A program made the translations under genes and the position numbers. Shown piece after piece: positions 391 to 9,227 of a stretch of DNA of 64,000 nt. Numbering within the stretch: the first letter of the stretch is position 1; the number at the start of each line of letters is the position of its first letter. The stretch comes from Maribacter huludaoensis (GTDB taxonomy: Bacteria > Bacteroidota > Bacteroidia > Flavobacteriales > Flavobacteriaceae): contig NZ_JARKMS010000001.1 of the NCBI RefSeq assembly GCF_029350945.1, forward strand, positions 834,313-898,312, written 5' to 3'. Under the pieces are notes generated by a model. It was not told the origin of the DNA. It searched no databases and saw nothing but the letters and a program-made list of their open reading frames with translations.

Positions 391-438
391 CTAACTCCTA
401 ACTCCTAACTCCTAACTCCTAACTCCTAACTCCTAACT
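391..438 (-). repeat. Heptamer tandem array, about 6.9 copies of TTAGGAG (minus strand)
   Basis: On the plus strand the unit is CTAACTC, repeated six times without error from 391 to 432, followed by a last unit CTAACTA whose central bases lie in the proA stop codon (437-439). On the transcript the array therefore begins in the stop codon TAG and runs as TTAGGAG units towards proB. Each unit contains AGGAG, which resembles a Shine-Dalgarno core, although this phylum makes little use of such sites. A second array with the same unit sits behind argG. Confidence 0.95.
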
Positions 439-1633
439 ACCTTACCTGTCCATTTCCTTTTACGTACCACTTATTGGTTACTAGATGCTGTAATCCTATA
501 GGTCCGCGTTGATGTAATTTATCTGTACTAATGGCTAGTTCTCCTCCAAGTCCAAATTGTCCACCATCCGTAAAGCGGGTAGATGCATTATGGTATACCG
601 CAGCGGTGTCCACAGATTGCATGAAAATATCTGCTTCCTCTTCATTTTTAGTAATGATAGAAGCGGAGTGGCCGCCTCCATAGGTATTGATGAGCTGTAC
701 GGCTTCATCTACATCTGGCACTTGCCCTAGTACAATTTTATAATCCAAAAACTCTTCAAACCAAATAGATTCATTTTCCATTTGAGAGGTGCCATCTAAT
801 CCGGCTAATTTGGCATCGGTCAAAATTTCAACATTGTGTTTTTTAAGGGTCTTAATCAAATGACTTAAAAATTCTGCCTTGCGTGGTAAATCTCTTGAAA
901 TGATGACTTTGTCAACGGCATTACAAGCGGAAATTTTTGTGGTCTTTGCATTGACGATAACATCCAGTGCCATTTGCAAATCTGCCTCGTGCGAAACATA
1001 TACAAAGTTATTTCCTCTACCGCTTACTATTACCGGGCACTGTGCATGTTGCTTAACAAAAGCGATCAGTTTTTCGCCACCTCTAGGTACAATTAAGTCT
1101 AGTTTTTGTGTTGGTTTTTCTAAAAACTGCTGAGTTTCTGTTCTAGAATAATTAAGGTAGGTTACCCAGTCCGTAGCACAATCGCAAGACTCCAAAGCTT
1201 TGTGCCATAGGTTTACTAAAACCAAATTGGAGTTCAAAGACTCTTTGCCCCCCTTTAGCAATATTTTGTTACCTGATTTAAATGCGATACCCGCAGCTTC
1301 AATGGTAACATCTGGTCTAGATTCATAAATAATCATGATCGTACCGAAAGGTGCGGTTTTATTGCTGATCTCTAAACCATTTTCATGGGTAAATTGAAAA
1401 CGTTCTACATGCAAAGGGTCTGGCAAGGCAGCTAATTTTTTCAAGGAAGAAATCATTTCTGCCACCTTGGTCTTGTTTACCTTTAAGCGATCAACCATTG
1501 CGATATCGCCTGATTCAAAAGAATTTAAATCTTTTTCATTGGCAGATATTAGAATTGATTCTTCTTGCTGCACCAATTCGGCCATACGCTTAAGTACGGC
1601 ATTCCTTTTAGATATGCTTAGGGTTGTCTTCAT
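437..1633 (-). CDS. proA: Gamma-glutamyl phosphate reductase (glutamate-5-semialdehyde dehydrogenase)
   Basis: This 398-residue protein of the aldehyde dehydrogenase superfamily reduces gamma-glutamyl phosphate to glutamate semialdehyde with NADPH, the second step of proline synthesis in the cytoplasm. Visible family motifs are YESRPDVTIEAAG near residue 103, LIVPRGGEKLI near 180, and SACNAVDKVI with the likely catalytic Cys237; length matches the family. Its ATG overlaps the argD stop by 4 bp (ATGA type), so the two are probably translationally coupled, and proB follows. The stop codon is shared with the first unit of a TTAGGAG repeat array. Function is certain by motif and context. Confidence 0.97.
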   Translation of the reverse strand: MKTTLSISKRNAVLKRMAELVQQEESILISANEKDLNSFESGDIAMVDRLKVNKTKVAEMISSLKKLAALPDPLHVERFQFTHENGLEISNKTAPFGTIMIIYESRPDVTIEAAGIAFKSGNKILLKGGKESLNSNLVLVNLWHKALESCDCATDWVTYLNYSRTETQQFLEKPTQKLDLIVPRGGEKLIAFVKQHAQCPVIVSGRGNNFVYVSHEADLQMALDVIVNAKTTKISACNAVDKVIISRDLPRKAEFLSHLIKTLKKHNVEILTDAKLAGLDGTSQMENESIWFEEFLDYKIVLGQVPDVDEAVQLINTYGGGHSASIITKNEEEADIFMQSVDTAAVYHNASTRFTDGGQFGLGGELAISTDKLHQRGPIGLQHLVTNKWYVKGNGQVR

Positions 1634-2754
1634 GATAGGGCTTTTTTAAGAGCTGTAAAAAACACGTCTAAATCTTGTTTTGTAATATTCAGGGCAGGTA
1701 AAATTCTTAGCACTGTTTTATCTTTTGCCCCACCGGTAAAAAGAAAATGTTCGTGAATTAATTTTTTACGTAGATCGGCAACCTGAAAATCAAATTCAAG
1801 CCCTAACATTAAGCCTTTTCCTTTTACCCGTTTTACTTGTGGAATTTCTTTTGCCTTTTCGTTGAAATATTCGCCTAATGCTTTAGCATTTTGAATTAGA
1901 TTTTCTTTTTCAATTACTTCTAAAACCGCCATGGTGGCTGCGCAAGCCAAATGATTGCCACCGAAAGTGGTGCCCAACATTCCGTATTTTGCCTTTATAC
2001 TTTCATGAATAAGAATACCACCTACCGGAAAACCGTTTCCCATTCCCTTAGCAATACTAATGATGTCCGGTTGAATGTTATGATGTTGAAATGCAAAGAA
2101 TTTTCCGCTTCTGCCAAATCCGCATTGTACTTCATCTGCAATCAACAATGCATCATTCTCTTTACATAACAAAGCAACCTTTTGTAAGAATTCGGTCGTA
2201 GGTTCATCTAAACCACCAACGCCTTGAATAGATTCAATGATAACGGCACAAACATTCTTTGATATTTCCTTTTCAAAACCCTTACTGTCGTTTAGGTCAA
2301 GAAATACAACTTCGTGTTGCAGGTTAATTTCAGCATTGATAGATGGATTGTCCGTTGTTGCTACCGCAGCAGAAGTACGTCCATGAAAACCGTTGTTAAA
2401 GGCGATTACCTTTGATTTTCCGGTTACAAAAGAAGCCATTTTCAATGCGTTTTCATTTGCCTCTGCGCCAGAGTTGCACATGAATAGATTGTAATCTTCA
2501 CAATTGGATGCTTCACCCAATTTGTTGGCCAATTCTACCTGTAAAGGGTTTTGTACCGCATTGCTATAAAACCCAATATTATCCAATTGGTCTTTTAAAC
2601 GCTTTACATAATGTGGGTGCGTATGGCCAATGGAAATAACGGCATGCCCGCCGTAGAAATCCAAATAATCCTGTCCTTGGTCATCAGTTACTACAATGCC
2701 TTTTGCGGAAACCGGGGTTACATTATATAAAGGGTAAACGTCAAATAATTTCAT
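1630..2754 (-). CDS. argD: Acetylornithine/succinylornithine aminotransferase family protein
   Basis: A class III PLP-dependent aminotransferase of 374 residues. It shows FMCNSGAEANENA near residue 91, DEVQCGFGRSG near 207 and IAKGMGNGFPVG with the likely PLP lysine Lys236. In the arginine pathway it exchanges the amino group between N-acyl-glutamate semialdehyde and N-acyl-ornithine. Members of this phylum are known to use N-succinylated intermediates (the argF' type), so the acyl group may be succinyl; the sequence alone does not decide. It lies between proC (upstream) and proA (4-bp overlap), so glutamate semialdehyde/ornithine chemistry of both pathways is co-transcribed. The 374-residue length is near the short end for ArgD. 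Confidence 0.93.
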   Translation of the reverse strand: MKLFDVYPLYNVTPVSAKGIVVTDDQGQDYLDFYGGHAVISIGHTHPHYVKRLKDQLDNIGFYSNAVQNPLQVELANKLGEASNCEDYNLFMCNSGAEANENALKMASFVTGKSKVIAFNNGFHGRTSAAVATTDNPSINAEINLQHEVVFLDLNDSKGFEKEISKNVCAVIIESIQGVGGLDEPTTEFLQKVALLCKENDALLIADEVQCGFGRSGKFFAFQHHNIQPDIISIAKGMGNGFPVGGILIHESIKAKYGMLGTTFGGNHLACAATMAVLEVIEKENLIQNAKALGEYFNEKAKEIPQVKRVKGKGLMLGLEFDFQVADLRKKLIHEHFLFTGGAKDKTVLRILPALNITKQDLDVFFTALKKALS

Positions 2755-2802: not shown

Positions 2803-3597
2803 TTACTTGTTTTTGAATTCAGTGATCTTGTCGTAAGAGGAAATAATTCCGCGTATCAATGATGAGCTTAAACCTTGGTGTTCCATTTCATTTAAACCGG
2901 TTATGGTACAACCCATAGGCGTGGTAACACGGTCAATTTCTTCTTCAGGATGATTGCCAGATTCGATTAAAAGACTTGCGGCACCGTTACACGTATGCAT
3001 GGCAAGCTCTTGCGCCTCTTTGGCATCAAAACCAAGTTGTATGGCTCCTTGGGTAGTGGCACGTATTAAGCGCATCCAAAAAGCTACACCACTTGCACAG
3101 ATTACGGTTGCAGCCTGCATTTGACCTTCGGGGATTTCCATAGAATGTCCCATTCTATTAAAAATGGCTTTTGCCAATTCAACCCTTTTTTTGCCTTTTT
3201 CGTTGCTACAGATACAGGTCATGGATTTACCCACGGAAATAGCCGTATTGGGCATACTTCTTATGATAAAGTTGTCTTTACCAATTACCGCTTCTATTTT
3301 TTCGATGCTAAATCCGGTAATAGTTGAGATGATTACATGTTTATCCGTCAATAGATCTTTTATACTTTCTAAAATGGCGGCAAAATGAATAGGCTGTACG
3401 GCAAATATTAAAATATCTGAATTTTCAACGGCTATTCTATTGTCATTTGTAACGGTAACCTTATCATATTTCTCAAATTCTGCTATAGCTGTGGTATCCC
3501 TTTTGGTAAGGTACATACTGGTAGCACCATTACTGTTCAATATGCCTTTAGCAATAGAAAGTCCTAAATTACCTGTACCTATAATGGCTGTTTTCAT
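2803..3597 (-). CDS. proC: Pyrroline-5-carboxylate reductase
   Basis: A 264-residue protein with an N-terminal Rossmann motif IGTGNLGLSIAKG (residues 6-18), the internal IRSMPNTAISVGKSM motif and a C-terminal stretch from VTTPMGCTITGLNEMEHQG, all typical of ProC. It reduces pyrroline-5-carboxylate to proline using NAD(P)H, the last step of proline synthesis. It is embedded in the arginine genes between argC and argD, 48 bp upstream of argD. The 134-bp spacer towards argC carries AT-rich degenerate repeats. The length fits the family and the assignment is firm. Confidence 0.96.
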   Translation of the reverse strand: MKTAIIGTGNLGLSIAKGILNSNGATSMYLTKRDTTAIAEFEKYDKVTVTNDNRIAVENSDILIFAVQPIHFAAILESIKDLLTDKHVIISTITGFSIEKIEAVIGKDNFIIRSMPNTAISVGKSMTCICSNEKGKKRVELAKAIFNRMGHSMEIPEGQMQAATVICASGVAFWMRLIRATTQGAIQLGFDAKEAQELAMHTCNGAASLLIESGNHPEEEIDRVTTPMGCTITGLNEMEHQGLSSSLIRGIISSYDKITEFKNK

Positions 3598-4819: not shown

Positions 4820-4861
4820 CTAACTCCTAACTCCTAACTCCTAACTCCTAACTCCTAACTA
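4820..4861 (-). repeat. Heptamer tandem array, 6 copies of TTAGGAG (minus strand), fused to argG stop
   Basis: Five exact CTAACTC units (plus strand, 4820-4854) plus a last CTAACTA whose CTA (4859-4861) is the complement of the argG TAG stop codon. The arrangement is the same as behind proA: the transcript passes from the stop codon straight into TTAGGAG repeats, and both arrays end in TTAGGAAAA. Confidence 0.95.
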
Positions 4862-6046
4862 TTTATCCCCATTTACATGGTTGTAGATTTTTCCGGAATT
4901 TGAAAGAATCTTAATAAATCCTTTAGCGTCATCTGCTGTCCATCCTTTATTGACCTCGCCATATTTACCAAAAGCATCGGTCATTAAATCATGTTTAGAT
5001 GAAATACCGTGTAACCTGAACTGAAATGGATATAAGCCTACAAATACATCTCCGGAAACCGTTTTTTGAGTATCTGTCAAGAAGGTTTCTATGTTACGCA
5101 TTACAGCATCTAGGTAATTGCCTTCATGCAATAACATGCCATAGAAATTGCCTTGTTGTTCCTTTTGATATTGTTGCCACTTTGTAAGTGTATGTTTCTC
5201 TAATAAGTGATGTGCTTTTATGATAATTAAAGAAGCAGGAGCCTCAAACCCAACTCTGCCTTTGGTACCTATAATAGTATCGCCAACGTGAATATCCCTT
5301 CCAATGGCATATTTAGATGCCAAAGCCTCTAGTTTTTCAATATTTGCAACTGGGTTGTCTTTTGCACCATCAATAGCAACCAATTCGCCATTTTCAAAAG
5401 TAAGTTTTACCTCTGTAGGGTTCTTTTCCTTTAATTGGCTTGGGTAGGCGCTATCTGGTAAGGGCTTTTCTGAAGTTAATGTCTCTTCGCCACCAACAGA
5501 AGTACCCCAAAGTCCTCTATTAATAGAGTATTTTGCTTTTTCCCATGGATAATCTACACCGTTTTCTTTTAAGTATGCGATCTCTTCTTCCCTAGCTAAT
5601 TTGTTATCTCTAATAGGCGTGATGATTTCAATTTCTGGGGCAATGATCTGGAAAATCATATCAAAACGTACTTGGTCGTTACCCGCGCCTGTACTACCGT
5701 GGGCAATATAACCAGCGCCTATCTTTTTAGCGTAGTTTACAATTTCTATTGCCTGTACAATTCGTTCTGCACTTACGGAAAGTGGGTAGGTATTGTTTTT
5801 AAGTACATTACCAAAAATAAGATACTTTACTACTTTATCATAAAAGGTCCGTACGGCATCTATAGAGGTATAAGATGAAGCGCCCAGTTCAATAGCTTTC
5901 TTCTCAATTTCCTTTATTTCCTCAACAGAGAAACCTCCTGTGTTCACGCTTACTGCATGAACTTCAAATCCTTTGTCTTTTGATAAATGCTTGGCGCAAT
6001 AAGAAGTATCCAATCCGCCGCTGTATGCTAGTACTAATTTTTTCAT
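4859..6046 (-). CDS. argG: Argininosuccinate synthase
   Basis: A 395-residue ATP-dependent ligase that joins citrulline and aspartate in the cytoplasm. The N-terminal P-loop-like motif LAYSGGLDTSYC (residues 4-15) and the motif AHGSTGAGNDQVRFD near residue 115 are diagnostic; total length matches the bacterial family. It is the second structural gene of the operon, 148 bp behind the GNAT gene. A small perfect hairpin (6062-6075) and a longer inverted repeat are in that spacer. The stop codon overlaps a TTAGGAG array. Assignment is certain. Confidence 0.97.
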   Translation of the reverse strand: MKKLVLAYSGGLDTSYCAKHLSKDKGFEVHAVSVNTGGFSVEEIKEIEKKAIELGASSYTSIDAVRTFYDKVVKYLIFGNVLKNNTYPLSVSAERIVQAIEIVNYAKKIGAGYIAHGSTGAGNDQVRFDMIFQIIAPEIEIITPIRDNKLAREEEIAYLKENGVDYPWEKAKYSINRGLWGTSVGGEETLTSEKPLPDSAYPSQLKEKNPTEVKLTFENGELVAIDGAKDNPVANIEKLEALASKYAIGRDIHVGDTIIGTKGRVGFEAPASLIIIKAHHLLEKHTLTKWQQYQKEQQGNFYGMLLHEGNYLDAVMRNIETFLTDTQKTVSGDVFVGLYPFQFRLHGISSKHDLMTDAFGKYGEVNKGWTADDAKGFIKILSNSGKIYNHVNGDK

Positions 6047-6194: not shown

Positions 6195-6809
6195 TTATTT
6201 CTTTTTCAGAAACAAACTCTCTTTTATACTTTTTAATCTTGTAAATGCCTTACCGTTCATTTCTTTAGTGTTCTCAGTTTTTTTCTTTGTGGTAGGGTCA
6301 TATAACATACCCGTACAGAGACACATTTTTTGTTCAGTTCTCGTAAGGATGTCAAAATTCTTACAGGTTTGGCAACCTTTCCAAAACTCAGGGTCATCTG
6401 TAAGTTCAGAAAATGTAACAGGTTTATAGCCTAGTTCGTAGTTGATTTTCATCACTGCTAAACCTGTGGTGATCCCAAATATTTTGGCATCGGGAAATTT
6501 CTCCCTGCTTAATTCAAAGATTTTGGCTTTAATGCTTTTAGCTAGACCTTGCCCTCTATAATCTGGATGTACTATGAGACCGGAATTTGCTACAAATTTC
6601 TCGTGTCCCCATACTTCTATATAGCAGAAACCCGCAAATTTATCTCCGTCCAATGCAAGTATGGCATTACCGTTAGATAGTTTTCTTTGAATATACTCTG
6701 GGGTACGTTTTGCTATGCCGGTACCGCGTACTTTGGCAGATTCAGCAATGGTATCGCAGATATCCTGAGCGTATTTAAAATGTGATTCGTTAGCAACAAT
6801 TAAGTTCAT
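6195..6809 (-). CDS. GNAT family N-acyltransferase heading the arginine operon
   Basis: A 204-residue protein with a GNAT fold: the acyl-CoA binding segment VHPDYRGQGLAKSIKAKIFE (around residues 82-101) has the Q/R-x-x-G-x-G/A signature. The C-terminal part carries a cysteine group (GCQTCKNF and MCLCTGM) followed by a basic tail. It is the first structural gene behind the leader peptide ORF and precedes argG. I infer that it supplies the N-acyl-glutamate (acetyl or succinyl) needed for the first committed step, since no argA or argJ is seen here, but this is inference from position and family. The substrate is not shown by the sequence. Confidence 0.85.
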   Translation of the reverse strand: MNLIVANESHFKYAQDICDTIAESAKVRGTGIAKRTPEYIQRKLSNGNAILALDGDKFAGFCYIEVWGHEKFVANSGLIVHPDYRGQGLAKSIKAKIFELSREKFPDAKIFGITTGLAVMKINYELGYKPVTFSELTDDPEFWKGCQTCKNFDILTRTEQKMCLCTGMLYDPTTKKKTENTKEMNGKAFTRLKSIKESLFLKKK

Positions 6810-6831: not shown

Positions 6832-6946
6832 AAAAAAAAATTTGATTTTCTGTGCGGAAATGGACTCACCTAATTCCATAATTATATCTTACCCTTACGG
6901 GCGACGACGGCGAGATGTGAACGGGCGCGCTAGAGCCAATGGGCTC
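6832..6946 (-). promoter_or_regulatory. Possible attenuator RNA elements around the leader ORF
   Basis: Within the leader ORF GAGCC-CATT-GGCTC (6933-6946) forms a perfect 5-bp hairpin upstream of the Arg codons. CTCGCC at 6909-6914, overlapping the first of the four Arg codons, can pair with GGTGAG at 6865-6870 (one G-U pair). GGTGAG itself lies in the loop of an ATGGA/TCCAT stem (6860-6879). A run of nine U (6832-6840) follows. The word GTGAG(C/T)CCATT occurs twice. These mutually exclusive pairings could couple stalling to expression of the GNAT gene, but I see no strong canonical terminator stem next to the U run, so the mechanism is open. Confidence 0.45.
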
Positions 6947-6981
6947 ACGGTGCTATATAAAAAGTAGTTTATTTCGTTCAT
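6895..6981 (-). CDS. Arginine/proline leader peptide, 28 codons
   Basis: A short ORF on the minus strand starts with ATG at 6979-6981 and stops with TAA at 6895-6897. Its second half reads SPLALARPFTSRRRRP: five Arg codons (19 and 24-27) and three Pro codons (14, 20, 28), with four Arg in a row just before the final Pro and stop. It sits 85 nt upstream of the GNAT start of an operon that makes both arginine and proline. It is too short for ordinary gene calling. The GC content of this stretch is far above its surroundings. I interpret it as an attenuation leader in which ribosome stalling on Arg (and perhaps Pro) codons reports amino-acid supply; this is inferred, not shown. Confidence 0.8.
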   Translation of the reverse strand: MNEINYFLYSTVSPLALARPFTSRRRRP

Positions 6982-6996
6982 TATGGGGTAAATGTA

Positions 6997-7025
6997 CAAA
7001 TTATATTTATTTGACATCACTCAAC
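6997..7025 (-). promoter_or_regulatory. Candidate promoter of the arginine/proline operon
   Basis: On the minus strand GTTG (7022-7025) is followed after about 16 bp by TATAATTTG (6997-7005). This is close to the Bacteroidota -33 TTG / -7 TAnnTTTG pattern, though with one extra base between TA and TTTG. It ends 15 bp before the leader ATG, so the leader would have only a very short 5' UTR. Confidence 0.4.
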
Positions 7026-7045
7026 GTATAATTTTTACAAAAACT

Positions 7046-8389
7046 TCACTTTTTGTTATTATGTGCAATGATTTCATAAAACAAATAGCCATACACTGAA
7101 ATATATTCAATACCCAATAGCCACAAGTTTTCTTTGAAATCTGCCTGAGAATAAGCAAAGTAGCTCAGTACAATGGCCGCTGACCAAACTACGGCATATC
7201 TGTATGTTGTAAAAATAGAAAGTAAAACTAAAAAGATAGCGTACCAAGGGTGTACGGTAGTAGATATAAAGTAGTAAATGGTCAAAACCCACATCATAGA
7301 CCATAGTACCCTGTTTAGGTCATATCTTTTAGGTAAAAATGTAAATAGACCTACTGTTGCAATAGTAAATAAGGGCGTAAATTTTCCGTATTCTTTAATG
7401 AATTCCCATGGTTTTTCATCAAAATGTATGGCAGTTTTTTTAGCGATATTATAAATACTGGAATTGAACTCAAAATTAGAAAACCATAGTTTTAAGGTTT
7501 TACTATAGTTATCTAAAAATTCTGGGGTATTGAATGGCAGAAATAGTGCAATGGAAGTTATACCAATGATCATATAGAACACTATGCTTTTTTTCCAGCC
7601 CAGGTATTTAAAGAATAATGGTAAAAATAAAAGAGGTACTAATTTTATAGATATGGAACATGCCAAAACAACACCGGCGGTTTTCCATTTGTTTAACGAT
7701 AAAAGGTACATGGCAACAATAAAGAAAAACAGCATGACCCCTTCAAAATGAAGATTTCCGGTGAGTTCAACTATTACAAGCGGATTAATGAAATACCAGA
7801 AAATTAAATGCGGAGATCGGTTCAAGTTTTTCAGCAGCTTTCTTCCAAAATATATTATACCGATATCTGCAAGAATAATAATTGAACGCAGGGCTATTAA
7901 TGAACCAAAAATACTTTTGCCGCCAAGAATTGTGGCCAAGGCAAAAATAAGTTGGTTTAAAGGTGGGTAATTGCTATAGTGCCTTGCGCTTAAACTGCCC
8001 ATGCCATTGTAAAGTTCTTTGGCGTTCGGTATTATTGATACCATGTTTTGCATCAATTCATCTGGAGTGTGTAGATAAGGATTTATGCCGCTTGAGACCA
8101 GTTGACCGTCCCATATAAACCTATAAAAATCTTGAGAAAGATTAGGTTCTATAAAAAGAAAGATTAATCTAAATATGATGCCGATACCTAGCAACAACCT
8201 GAAGTTCATTTTTTCAAACTGTATCAGTTTAAAACAGAAAAAGAAAAGTGCTATAAATAGGGAGAGCAACTTTATAAAATCGGTTCTATCTAGATGATAG
8301 GCAAAGGTGTAGTAAAACACAAAACTTAATACTGCCAATATCAAGGAAATTCTATGGAGTTTCAGAAAATTCTTAAAGGTAATCGGCAT
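7046..8389 (-). CDS. GT-C fold membrane glycosyltransferase (GT87-like)
   Basis: A 447-residue polytopic membrane protein with about ten or more hydrophobic segments. The first large loop holds FYRFIWDGQLVSSGINPY and HYSNYPPLNQL (around residues 87-145), the D-x-x-x-Y-x-x-x-P / YPPL pattern of polyprenyl-phosphate-sugar dependent GT-C enzymes such as GT87 mannosyltransferases. It probably transfers a sugar from a lipid carrier on the periplasmic face, but donor and acceptor are unknown. It stands 55 bp downstream of agmatinase on the same strand and may be a separate unit. The following spacer contains the leader promoter of the arginine operon. Confidence 0.75.
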   Translation of the reverse strand: MPITFKNFLKLHRISLILAVLSFVFYYTFAYHLDRTDFIKLLSLFIALFFFCFKLIQFEKMNFRLLLGIGIIFRLIFLFIEPNLSQDFYRFIWDGQLVSSGINPYLHTPDELMQNMVSIIPNAKELYNGMGSLSARHYSNYPPLNQLIFALATILGGKSIFGSLIALRSIIILADIGIIYFGRKLLKNLNRSPHLIFWYFINPLVIVELTGNLHFEGVMLFFFIVAMYLLSLNKWKTAGVVLACSISIKLVPLLFLPLFFKYLGWKKSIVFYMIIGITSIALFLPFNTPEFLDNYSKTLKLWFSNFEFNSSIYNIAKKTAIHFDEKPWEFIKEYGKFTPLFTIATVGLFTFLPKRYDLNRVLWSMMWVLTIYYFISTTVHPWYAIFLVLLSIFTTYRYAVVWSAAIVLSYFAYSQADFKENLWLLGIEYISVYGYLFYEIIAHNNKK

Positions 8390-8444: not shown

Positions 8445-9227
8445 TCAATTGCCCATCAATTTTCCTAAAAGTTCTTTCATCATTTTTGCAGCTAAGTAAG
8501 CGGTCATGTCATGAAAGTCTCGGTCAGGGTTATATTCTACAATATCGGCGCCAACGACTTCTGTATCTATGCCATGGATCAAATCTAAAACTTGACGAGA
8601 TGAGAGTCCGCCAGGTTCATGGTGCGAAACTCCAGGGGCAAATGCAGGGTCAAAACCATCCATATCCAAGGAAATATAAAGCGGATTTTCAAATTTAGGT
8701 ATGGCGTTCAAATCTAGGTTACGCATTTCATGCACGTCAACATTGTATTTTTTTGCTTGATCGGCCTGATGTGGATTTAAGGTGCGAATACCTACTTGAA
8801 TAAGTTTTACGGCATAGCCGTTTTCCATAATTCTTGCAAATGGGCAAGCGTGGGAGTAAGGGTCGCCTTCATAGTCATGGTATAGATCAGCGTGTGCATC
8901 TATATGTAAAATATCTAGTTTTGGGTAGTGTTCATTTAATGCTTTTATTATGGGAAACGTAACGGAATGGTCACCACCTAAAGAAAGCAATTTTGAGCCA
9001 GATTCAATATTCTTTTTGGTAATGGTTTCAATATCAAAATACTCGTTGATGATAAAATCACCCTTGTCTATTACAGCATCATTTTCTATAGATATACCTA
9101 ATTCGGTATATAGGTTCATAGAGTCGCTGTACAATGCTTTTCTGATTAAGTCTGGAGCTTTTGCAGGCCCACTTTGAAAAGATGATTTTGCATCCCAATT
9201 AATGCCTTGAATAGTAATGTCTTTCAT
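8445..9227 (-). CDS. speB: Agmatinase / arginase family ureohydrolase
   Basis: A 260-residue member of the ureohydrolase family. The binuclear manganese site is visible as GGDHSVT (near residue 103), DAHADLY (near 127) and SLDMDGFDPAFAPGV (near 205). Such enzymes release urea from agmatine or a related guanidino compound; agmatinase is the likeliest activity, with formiminoglutamase or arginase as alternatives. The gene lies 26 bp after a SnoaL-like gene and behind an AraC regulator. Its position close to, but not inside, the arginine operon suggests arginine-derived polyamine metabolism. Confidence 0.85.
   Translation of the reverse strand: MKDITIQGINWDAKSSFQSGPAKAPDLIRKALYSDSMNLYTELGISIENDAVIDKGDFIINEYFDIETITKKNIESGSKLLSLGGDHSVTFPIIKALNEHYPKLDILHIDAHADLYHDYEGDPYSHACPFARIMENGYAVKLIQVGIRTLNPHQADQAKKYNVDVHEMRNLDLNAIPKFENPLYISLDMDGFDPAFAPGVSHHEPGGLSSRQVLDLIHGIDTEVVGADIVEYNPDRDFHDMTAYLAAKMMKELLGKLMGN

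What the first reader, a model, noticed from the sequence alone, without database searches (positions are those of the whole stretch)
6832..7025. Arg/Pro-rich 28-codon leader peptide heads the combined arginine-proline operon
Seen: on the minus strand an ORF (6981 to 6895) ends R-R-R-R-P-stop and contains five Arg and three Pro codons, in a strikingly GC-rich island, preceded by a promoter-like TATAATTTG and followed 85 nt later by the first gene of an operon that makes both arginine and proline. Possible exclusive pairings (GAGCC/GGCTC inside the ORF; CTCGCC over the Arg codons with GGTGAG) and a run of nine U follow. Known: leader peptides rich in the product amino acid control his, trp, leu and other operons in Proteobacteria. 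Inference: this is an attenuator that senses Arg and perhaps Pro in a flavobacterium. The stem by the U run is weak, so the mechanism could be translational or new.
Basis: partly seen in the sequence, partly recalled or inferred. Interest (0 to 1): 0.85.

Follow-up and report, generated by a model that had tools for sequence, protein, structure and literature searches.

The report
Arginine leader-peptide switch in Maribacter
A marine flavobacterium appears to control its combined arginine-proline operon with a tiny arginine-rich peptide gene and a previously uncatalogued RNA structure; how the RNA changes expression is not yet known.

Summary
The 28-codon ORF (6981-6895, minus strand) is present in frame in all 35 Maribacter loci fetched and, more variably, across the family. 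Small ORFs with an RRR run occur upstream of the GNAT-argG operon in 88 of 130 loci; shuffles give 1.1. In the leader frame a stop directly follows Arg-Pro in 107 of 118 loci.

Three hairpins go with it: H0 inside the ORF, H1 around the stop codon, and H2, starting 20-21 nt behind the stop's first base in 98 of 118 loci. H1-H2 covaries and has no Rfam match. It was found in 94 of 149 family genomes; in order and phylum scans every match was in this family. The ArgR domain PF01316 was found in 0 of 149.

Best reading: a ribosome-mediated, arginine-sensing attenuator standing in for ArgR. No intrinsic terminator was found, and modelled start-codon accessibility does not change, so the output step is open. 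No expression data were available.

The parts
6997..7005 (-). promoter -7-like element TATAATTTG; TTTGTACATTTA follows (7000-6989)
   Evidence: conserved columns in alignment A4 of 42 type-1 leaders; promoter type recalled, transcription start not mapped
6895..6981 (-). leader ORF, 28 codons, MNEINYFLYSTVSPLALARPFTSRRRRP-stop
6933..6946 (-). hairpin H0 inside the leader ORF, GAGCC-CATT-GGCTC
   Evidence: 70 leaders, mean score 12.8 vs 10.1 in codon shuffles; 3' end 22-26 nt before the last three codons in 43 of 70
6901..6912 (-). run of four Arg codons CGC CGT CGT CGC, followed by CCG (6900-6898) and TAA (6897-6895)
6890..6903 (-). hairpin H1, CGCCC-GTAA-GGGTA, stop codon in the loop; 4 pairs form here, the fifth (C-A) does not
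   Evidence: found without guidance by RNAalifold
6856..6877 (-). hairpin H2, GGAATT-A-GG-TGAGT-CC-ATTTCC (one T-T mismatch here)
   Evidence: (97.6% and 99.5% of cells paired in its two helices)
6832..6840 (-). U9 run, no GC-rich stem next to it
6195..6809 (-). first operon gene, GNAT acetyltransferase
   Evidence: PF00583; no NCBIfam match at E 1e-10
4859..6046 (-). argG, argininosuccinate synthase
   Evidence: PF00764, PF20979
3732..4706 (-). argC
   Evidence: TIGR01850 over cut-off
2803..3597 (-). proC
   Evidence: TIGR00112 over cut-off
1630..2754 (-). argD-type aminotransferase
   Evidence: TIGR00707, 382 bits, below cut-off 410
437..1633 (-). proA
   Evidence: NF001221 and TIGR00407 over cut-off

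Best explanation
This is a leader-peptide attenuator that sets expression of an arginine-proline operon (eleven genes in a row) by the supply of charged arginyl-tRNA, and possibly prolyl-tRNA. Shown by comparison: a conserved coding frame with an Arg-rich, mostly CGY-coded C terminus; conserved hairpins H0, H1, H2; H1 around the leader stop; H2 at a near-fixed distance; the module lies upstream of argG; no ArgR domain found. Inferred: when arginine is scarce the ribosome stalls on the CGY run and holds the 5' arm of H1, so H1 cannot form while H2 can; when arginine is plentiful the ribosome finishes and leaves, and H1 forms. The H1/H2 state then decides whether RNA polymerase continues into the operon, most likely through a factor-dependent step, since no intrinsic terminator was found. 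Which state is ON, and the factor, are not shown.
For: Frame and start conserved in Maribacter. A stop directly after Arg-Pro in 107 of 118 loci, with three Pro codons and three stop codons in use; the locating pattern itself fixes most of Arg-Pro, so the stop is the free observation. Third-last codon Arg in 101 of these 107, in four spellings. RRR small ORF in 88 of 130 vs 1.1 by shuffling. Outside the last three codons 173 of 194 leader Arg codons are CGY vs 26 of 77 in window genes. H1-H2: 99 distinct sequences, 94.9% of cells paired, 9 of 13 pairs with both-side changes, 0 of 500 shuffles. Stop-to-H2 spacing 20-21 nt in 98 of 118. Module in 92 of 98 sampled genomes with the GNAT gene and 2 of 51 without. 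All 13 matches of the order scan lie upstream of GNAT-argG. PF01316 (ArgR) in 0 of 149 genomes, 9 of 14 controls positive. In a folding model GNAT-start accessibility stays 0.52-0.53 whatever the ribosome position.
Against: No expression data. No terminator-like site; five or more U in the 8 nt after H2 in only 9 of 122 loci. In the model the loss of H1 under a ribosome follows largely from the mask itself, and ribosomes on Arg codons and on the stop give similar H2 (0.55-0.63), so the state after release must matter. No conserved alternative partner for H1 or H2: Arg-run:H2-loop pairing is not above codon controls, 5'-UTR pairing to H2 is weak (78 of 2000 permutations), and the H1 3' arm freed by a stall pairs with many places. 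The window's module alone is not unusually stable (z -1.21, 28 of 200 shuffles as stable). 32 of 131 loci lack an RRR small ORF; 11 of 118 lack the stop at H1 and four more lack the H1 pattern.
Confidence: 0.75

Rival explanations
1. H1-H2 is mainly a binding site (for RNA polymerase, a NusG-like factor, Rho, an unknown protein or a ligand) that changes polymerase processivity, and leader translation only gates its folding.
For: The H2 loop AGG-UGNGU-CC is nearly invariant while its stem covaries, although the hand search that chose these rows favoured that loop; no terminator found; spacing nearly fixed; type-2 loci keep the module behind another leader ORF.
Against: No factor or ligand identified; no Rfam relative.
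Confidence: 0.35
2. The nascent peptide ending Arg-Arg-Pro-stop arrests the ribosome at the stop codon in response to free arginine (like TnaC or SpeFL), instead of measuring charged tRNA.
For: A stop directly behind Arg-Pro is kept in 107 of 118 loci while Pro and stop codons vary. TnaC also ends Arg-Pro-stop (recalled).
Against: The rest of the peptide is very variable. The Arg-Pro codons lie in the H1 5' arm and were part of the locating pattern, so their conservation is not independent evidence. 11 of 118 loci lack the stop.
Confidence: 0.15
3. Translational control: the leader structure hides the start of the GNAT gene, or terminating ribosomes reinitiate there.
Against: Predicted accessibility of the GNAT start is the same in four ribosome states (0.52-0.53, 71 leaders).
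Confidence: 0.2
4. Classical terminator/antiterminator attenuation with an intrinsic terminator at the U9 run.
For: A U-rich tract follows H2 by about 16-32 nt on average.
Against: No stem abuts the U tract in the window; U count next to H2 is low in most loci.
Confidence: 0.1
5. The ORF is a chance frame and carries no regulation.
For: Only that no protein or ribosome data exist.
Confidence: 0.01

Closest known systems
Ribosome-mediated attenuators of trp, his, leu, ilv operons (recalled)
   Same: Short leader ORF rich in the operon's product amino acid, between promoter and first gene, with RNA hairpins.
   Different: No intrinsic terminator found next to the hairpins; a stop-codon hairpin plus a second hairpin with a conserved loop; arginine rather than the usual amino acids.
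Leader-peptide attenuation proposed in Flavobacterium psychrophilum amino-acid operons (PMC9723704; passages and section 19 read)
   Same: Same family; leader peptides upstream of amino-acid operons; new 5' elements without Rfam hits (pheA, hisG among those named).
   Different: No arginine operon is named in what I read; supplements could not be opened. The 17 sampled genomes of genus g127 (taken to be Flavobacterium, not named) have no module match.
Bacteroid-trp RNA, RF01692 (PMC2864571, table passage seen)
   Same: Bacteroidetes element listed as likely cis-regulatory; attenuation function recalled.
   Different: No Rfam match above threshold or of this family to our element.
orf34/speF of Salmonella (PMC6386406, abstract and outline seen) and rbfL of Staphylococcus (PMC13009471, passages seen)
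   Same: Ribosome pausing at Arg codons of a short upstream ORF senses arginine.
   Different: Different operons, RNA structures and outputs (Rho and RNase G; RBS occlusion).

Membership tests
Ribosome-mediated amino-acid attenuator | short leader ORF rich in codons of the regulated amino acid | tested here: met
   translation itself is inferred from coding conservation
Ribosome-mediated amino-acid attenuator | lies between promoter and first gene of the matching biosynthetic operon | tested here: met
   promoter by motif only
Ribosome-mediated amino-acid attenuator | mutually exclusive RNA structures chosen by ribosome position | tested here: inconclusive
   masking a ribosome removes H1 largely by construction; no conserved alternative partner
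Ribosome-mediated amino-acid attenuator | intrinsic terminator before the first gene | tested here: not met
Ribosome-mediated amino-acid attenuator | expression responds to the amino acid | not testable with these tools
   no expression data
Any Rfam 15 family (T-box, Bacteroid-trp, Flavo-1 and others) | covariance-model match | tested here: not met
   window: five chance-level matches, all below gathering scores; 10 other loci: only a tRNA, in L131
ArgR-operator control | ArgR protein encoded in the genome | tested here: not met
   PF01316 0 of 1 own genome, 0 of 149 family genomes; PF02863 not searched
TnaC/SpeFL-type arrest peptide | conserved arrest residues at the C terminus | tested here: inconclusive
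   stop after Arg-Pro in 107 of 118, but overlapping the H1 constraint and the search pattern
TnaC/SpeFL-type arrest peptide | ligand-dependent arrest at the stop | not testable with these tools
   needs toeprinting

The most novel reading that the evidence does not exclude
H1-H2 is a new kind of ribosome-position reader: a stop-codon hairpin and, at a fixed distance, a second hairpin with a conserved loop that act directly on RNA polymerase or a termination factor, giving terminator-free attenuation that replaced ArgR in a family that (recalled) hardly uses Shine-Dalgarno sequences.
Probability: 0.3. Interest if true: 0.82.

Novelty: new variant of a known kind. Interest (0 to 1): 0.62.

Why it matters
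My searches (two of them returned no paper at all) gave no account of how flavobacteria control arginine synthesis without ArgR. This offers a concrete, testable regulator found in 94 of 149 sampled family genomes, with an RNA structure absent from Rfam, in a group whose transcription and translation signals differ (recalled) from the bacteria in which attenuation was worked out. It also lets tRNA charging be tied to operon output where no terminator is visible.

Tried and rejected
Intrinsic terminator at the U run: rejected. Arg-run:GGTGAG pairing as the general switch: six pairs possible in 64 of 118 loci, part of the minimum-energy fold of the window's module, but not above synonymous-codon controls over 45 leaders. 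Leader start pairing with linker and H2: strong in the window (-12.2 kcal/mol) but 78 of 2000 permutations overall; kept as a lead. ORF start pairing with the Arg run: 0 of 2000 permutations, picked from 66 segment pairs scanned, no consistent position checked; may reflect base composition; unexplained. Partner of the H1 3' arm under a stall at the first Arg: spread over the ORF (0.31), the stretch behind H2 (0.14), the GNAT start (0.10) and others. H2 motif as a genome repeat: rejected; one exact copy, near matches 34 forward and 46 reverse vs 35 and 36 for the control. Second R1 hit in the own genome (E 0.0037): antisense inside a coding ORF, taken as chance; four further hits at E 2.7-9.3 not examined. 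Upstream palindrome as an ArgR box: no PF01316 match.

Shuffles and permutations here do not remove shared ancestry, so their probabilities are optimistic. The hand score for H2 had no control of its own.

Full report
Setting. The window lies in a genome of a genus whose other members include Maribacter: contigs of several same-genus handles reappear under Maribacter names with identical lengths. On the minus strand GNAT-argG-argC-proC-argD-proA fill 6809-437; proB crosses the window's left edge, and an N-acetylornithine-type carbamoyltransferase, argB, an ArgE/DapE-type deacylase and argH follow. argH, argB, proA, proC and argC pass NCBIfam cut-offs. argD, the carbamoyltransferase (286.3 vs 288 bits), proB (listed from an internal ATG) and the deacylase fall below theirs; argG was named by Pfam only. 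One transcript is inferred, not shown.

The observation. A DNA match to the region occurs in 36 of 36 same-genus genomes, the own one included; one (G025) matched only in the U-rich stretch and was not fetched. In 149 genomes of the family, 98 have a GNAT relative at E<=1e-30. In all 131 loci were examined: 35 from Maribacter, 96 from other genera.

The peptide. 99 of 131 loci have a small ORF (ATG, GTG or TTG start) with at least three Arg in a row within 450 nt upstream of GNAT; 32 do not. With ATG only, 88 of 130 do, vs 1.1 in dinucleotide shuffles, and 28 of 1156 other 450-nt windows do. Some of the 88 may be accidental frames. A pattern close to CGY-CGC-CC located the C-terminal codons in 118 of 122 loci with the hairpin module. 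In that frame a stop follows directly in 107, with Pro written CCG 93, CCT 8, CCC 6 and the stop TAA 95, TAG 11, TGA 1; 11 have none. The pattern fixes most of the Arg-Pro codons, so only the stop, the Pro third base and the codons further upstream are free evidence. The third-last codon is Arg in 101 of 107 (two AGA, one CGA); the rest are Pro 4, Ser 1, Thr 1. The fourth-last is Arg in 72 of 107. Arg codons outside the last three are CGT or CGC in 173 of 194 cases, vs 26 of 77 in nine window genes, so mainly one kind of Arg codon is read. Arg is 16.3% and Pro 10.8% of residues in 72 type-1 leaders vs 2.6% and 3.1% in those genes; Pro sensing is possible, not shown.

The RNA. H1 (CGCCC-GUAA-GGGUG) holds the stop codon in its loop; H2 is GGAAAU-A-GG-UGNGU-CC-AUUUCC. 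A hand score, itself without a control, finds H2 in 122 of 131 loci. On those 33 (A2) and on 99 distinct model-fitted sequences (A3) the pairs covary: in A3 94.9% of cells pair, 9 of 13 pairs show both-side changes, and 0 of 500 shuffles reach any of the five measures. Slid controls reach at most 61.9% paired and 5 such pairs. A3 is fitted to the structure, which flatters it; most of the covariation is in H2, and the outermost H1 pair fails in 38 of 99. RNAalifold, not told the structure, found H1 and H2 on 42 type-1 leaders (A4), but its covariation term was only -0.11 and one pair had a both-side change. The window's module alone is not unusually stable (28 of 200 shuffles fold as well). The stop-to-H2 distance is 20 or 21 nt in 98 of 118 loci (range 17-23; for the 11 without a stop, its place was used).

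H0. A third hairpin lies inside the ORF. Its best stem scores 12.8 on average over 70 distinct leaders vs 10.1 (sd 0.4, maximum 11.1) in 200 codon shuffles; its end lies 22-26 nt before the last three codons in 43 of 70, many of them Maribacter. Single leaders often do not stand out: in the window's own, 35 of 200 shuffles reach its score. On A4 its columns pair in only 63.1% of cells.

Distribution. Model R2 matches 94 of 149 family genomes, once each: 92 of 98 with the GNAT gene and 2 of 51 without. One of those two (G118) has argG behind the module without a recognisable GNAT; the other (G109, E 4.4e-4) was not examined. Scans of 196 genomes of the order and 296 of the phylum give the same 13 matching genomes, all of this family and all upstream of GNAT-argG. 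How many of those genomes lie outside the family is not printed, and these scans used stricter filters that can lose weak matches. In the own genome the module is unique. Rfam 15 shows only chance-level matches in the window and one tRNA in ten other loci. The 17 sampled genomes of genus g127, probably Flavobacterium, have no match.

No ArgR. PF01316 finds nothing in the own genome or in 149 family genomes, while 9 of 14 control genomes ring (8 over the cut-off), including a Bacteroides. PF02863 was not searched. An attenuator would fill that gap.

Two architectures. In Maribacter and relatives (type 1) one ORF carries everything. In many other genera (type 2) a first ORF of the kind MKNLKNKIR...RNRRR ends some 210-290 nt before GNAT, and often a second, very short frame (for example MRRKFPRRP) ends at H1. 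The start of the first ORF pairs with the spacer behind it better than with spacers of other species (-10.4 vs -8.7, 0 of 2000 permutations, 39 loci). Eight of these 39 also had a type-1 leader, so some are accidental frames.

Mechanism. I folded 71 type-1 leaders free and with a ribosome masked over the first Arg codon of the run, the last one, or the stop. H1 goes from 0.64 to 0.00-0.01, largely because the mask forbids it; H2 goes from 0.45 to 0.55-0.63; accessibility of the GNAT start stays at 0.52-0.53. Simple start-codon hiding is thus not supported. With the ribosome on the first Arg, the freed 3' arm of H1 pairs mostly elsewhere, but with no single partner. There is no terminator-like site in the window, and 9 of 122 loci have five or more U in the eight bases after H2. 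The sensing half is well supported by comparison; the output half is open. I put a factor-dependent effect on elongation first because work on F. psychrophilum also inferred effects on transcriptional elongation for amino-acid leaders (PMC9723704, section 19).

Literature. Searches listed no paper whose title or passages seen describe this element; most subscription papers and all supplements were out of reach. Arginine-codon leaders are known elsewhere (PMC6386406, abstract and outline; PMC13009471, passages), and leader-like elements in Bacteroidetes are known (PMC2864571, table passage; PMC7366714 and PMC9723704, passages). PMC8632094 (passages) describes ribosome-attenuation motifs in other groups. 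Hence 'new variant of a known kind'.

Noticed in passing
7037-7056: 20-bp palindrome ACAAAAAGTGAAGTTTTTGT over the stop codon of the upstream gene and about 30 bp upstream of the -7 element; exact in 28 of 35 Maribacter loci, one mismatch in L043 and L050 among 96 others, one exact copy in the own genome. A candidate operator for an unknown regulator.
   Followed up: partly
L072:400-660 and other type-2 loci: Tandem leaders: a first ORF (KNKIR...RNRRR) whose start pairs with an AU-rich spacer ending in a U run, then a very short second frame ending at H1.
   Followed up: partly
L242:5411-5497: In a genome of genus g127 without the module, a 28-codon ORF MNKISLHITSLSRTISPGTSPEVRMLSI follows a TTTTG-containing promoter-like box upstream of GNAT-argG; possibly a diverged leader.
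   Followed up: no
L252 (G118:C41:301694-301753): Module followed by argG without a recognisable GNAT gene, so the association is with the arg operon rather than with GNAT itself.
   Followed up: partly
8445-9227: An arginase-family (PF00491) gene lies two genes upstream of the arginine operon.
   Followed up: no
6195-6809: The GNAT that heads the operon matches no NCBIfam model at E 1e-10, so its role in arginine synthesis (for example acetylglutamate synthesis) is unassigned.
   Followed up: no
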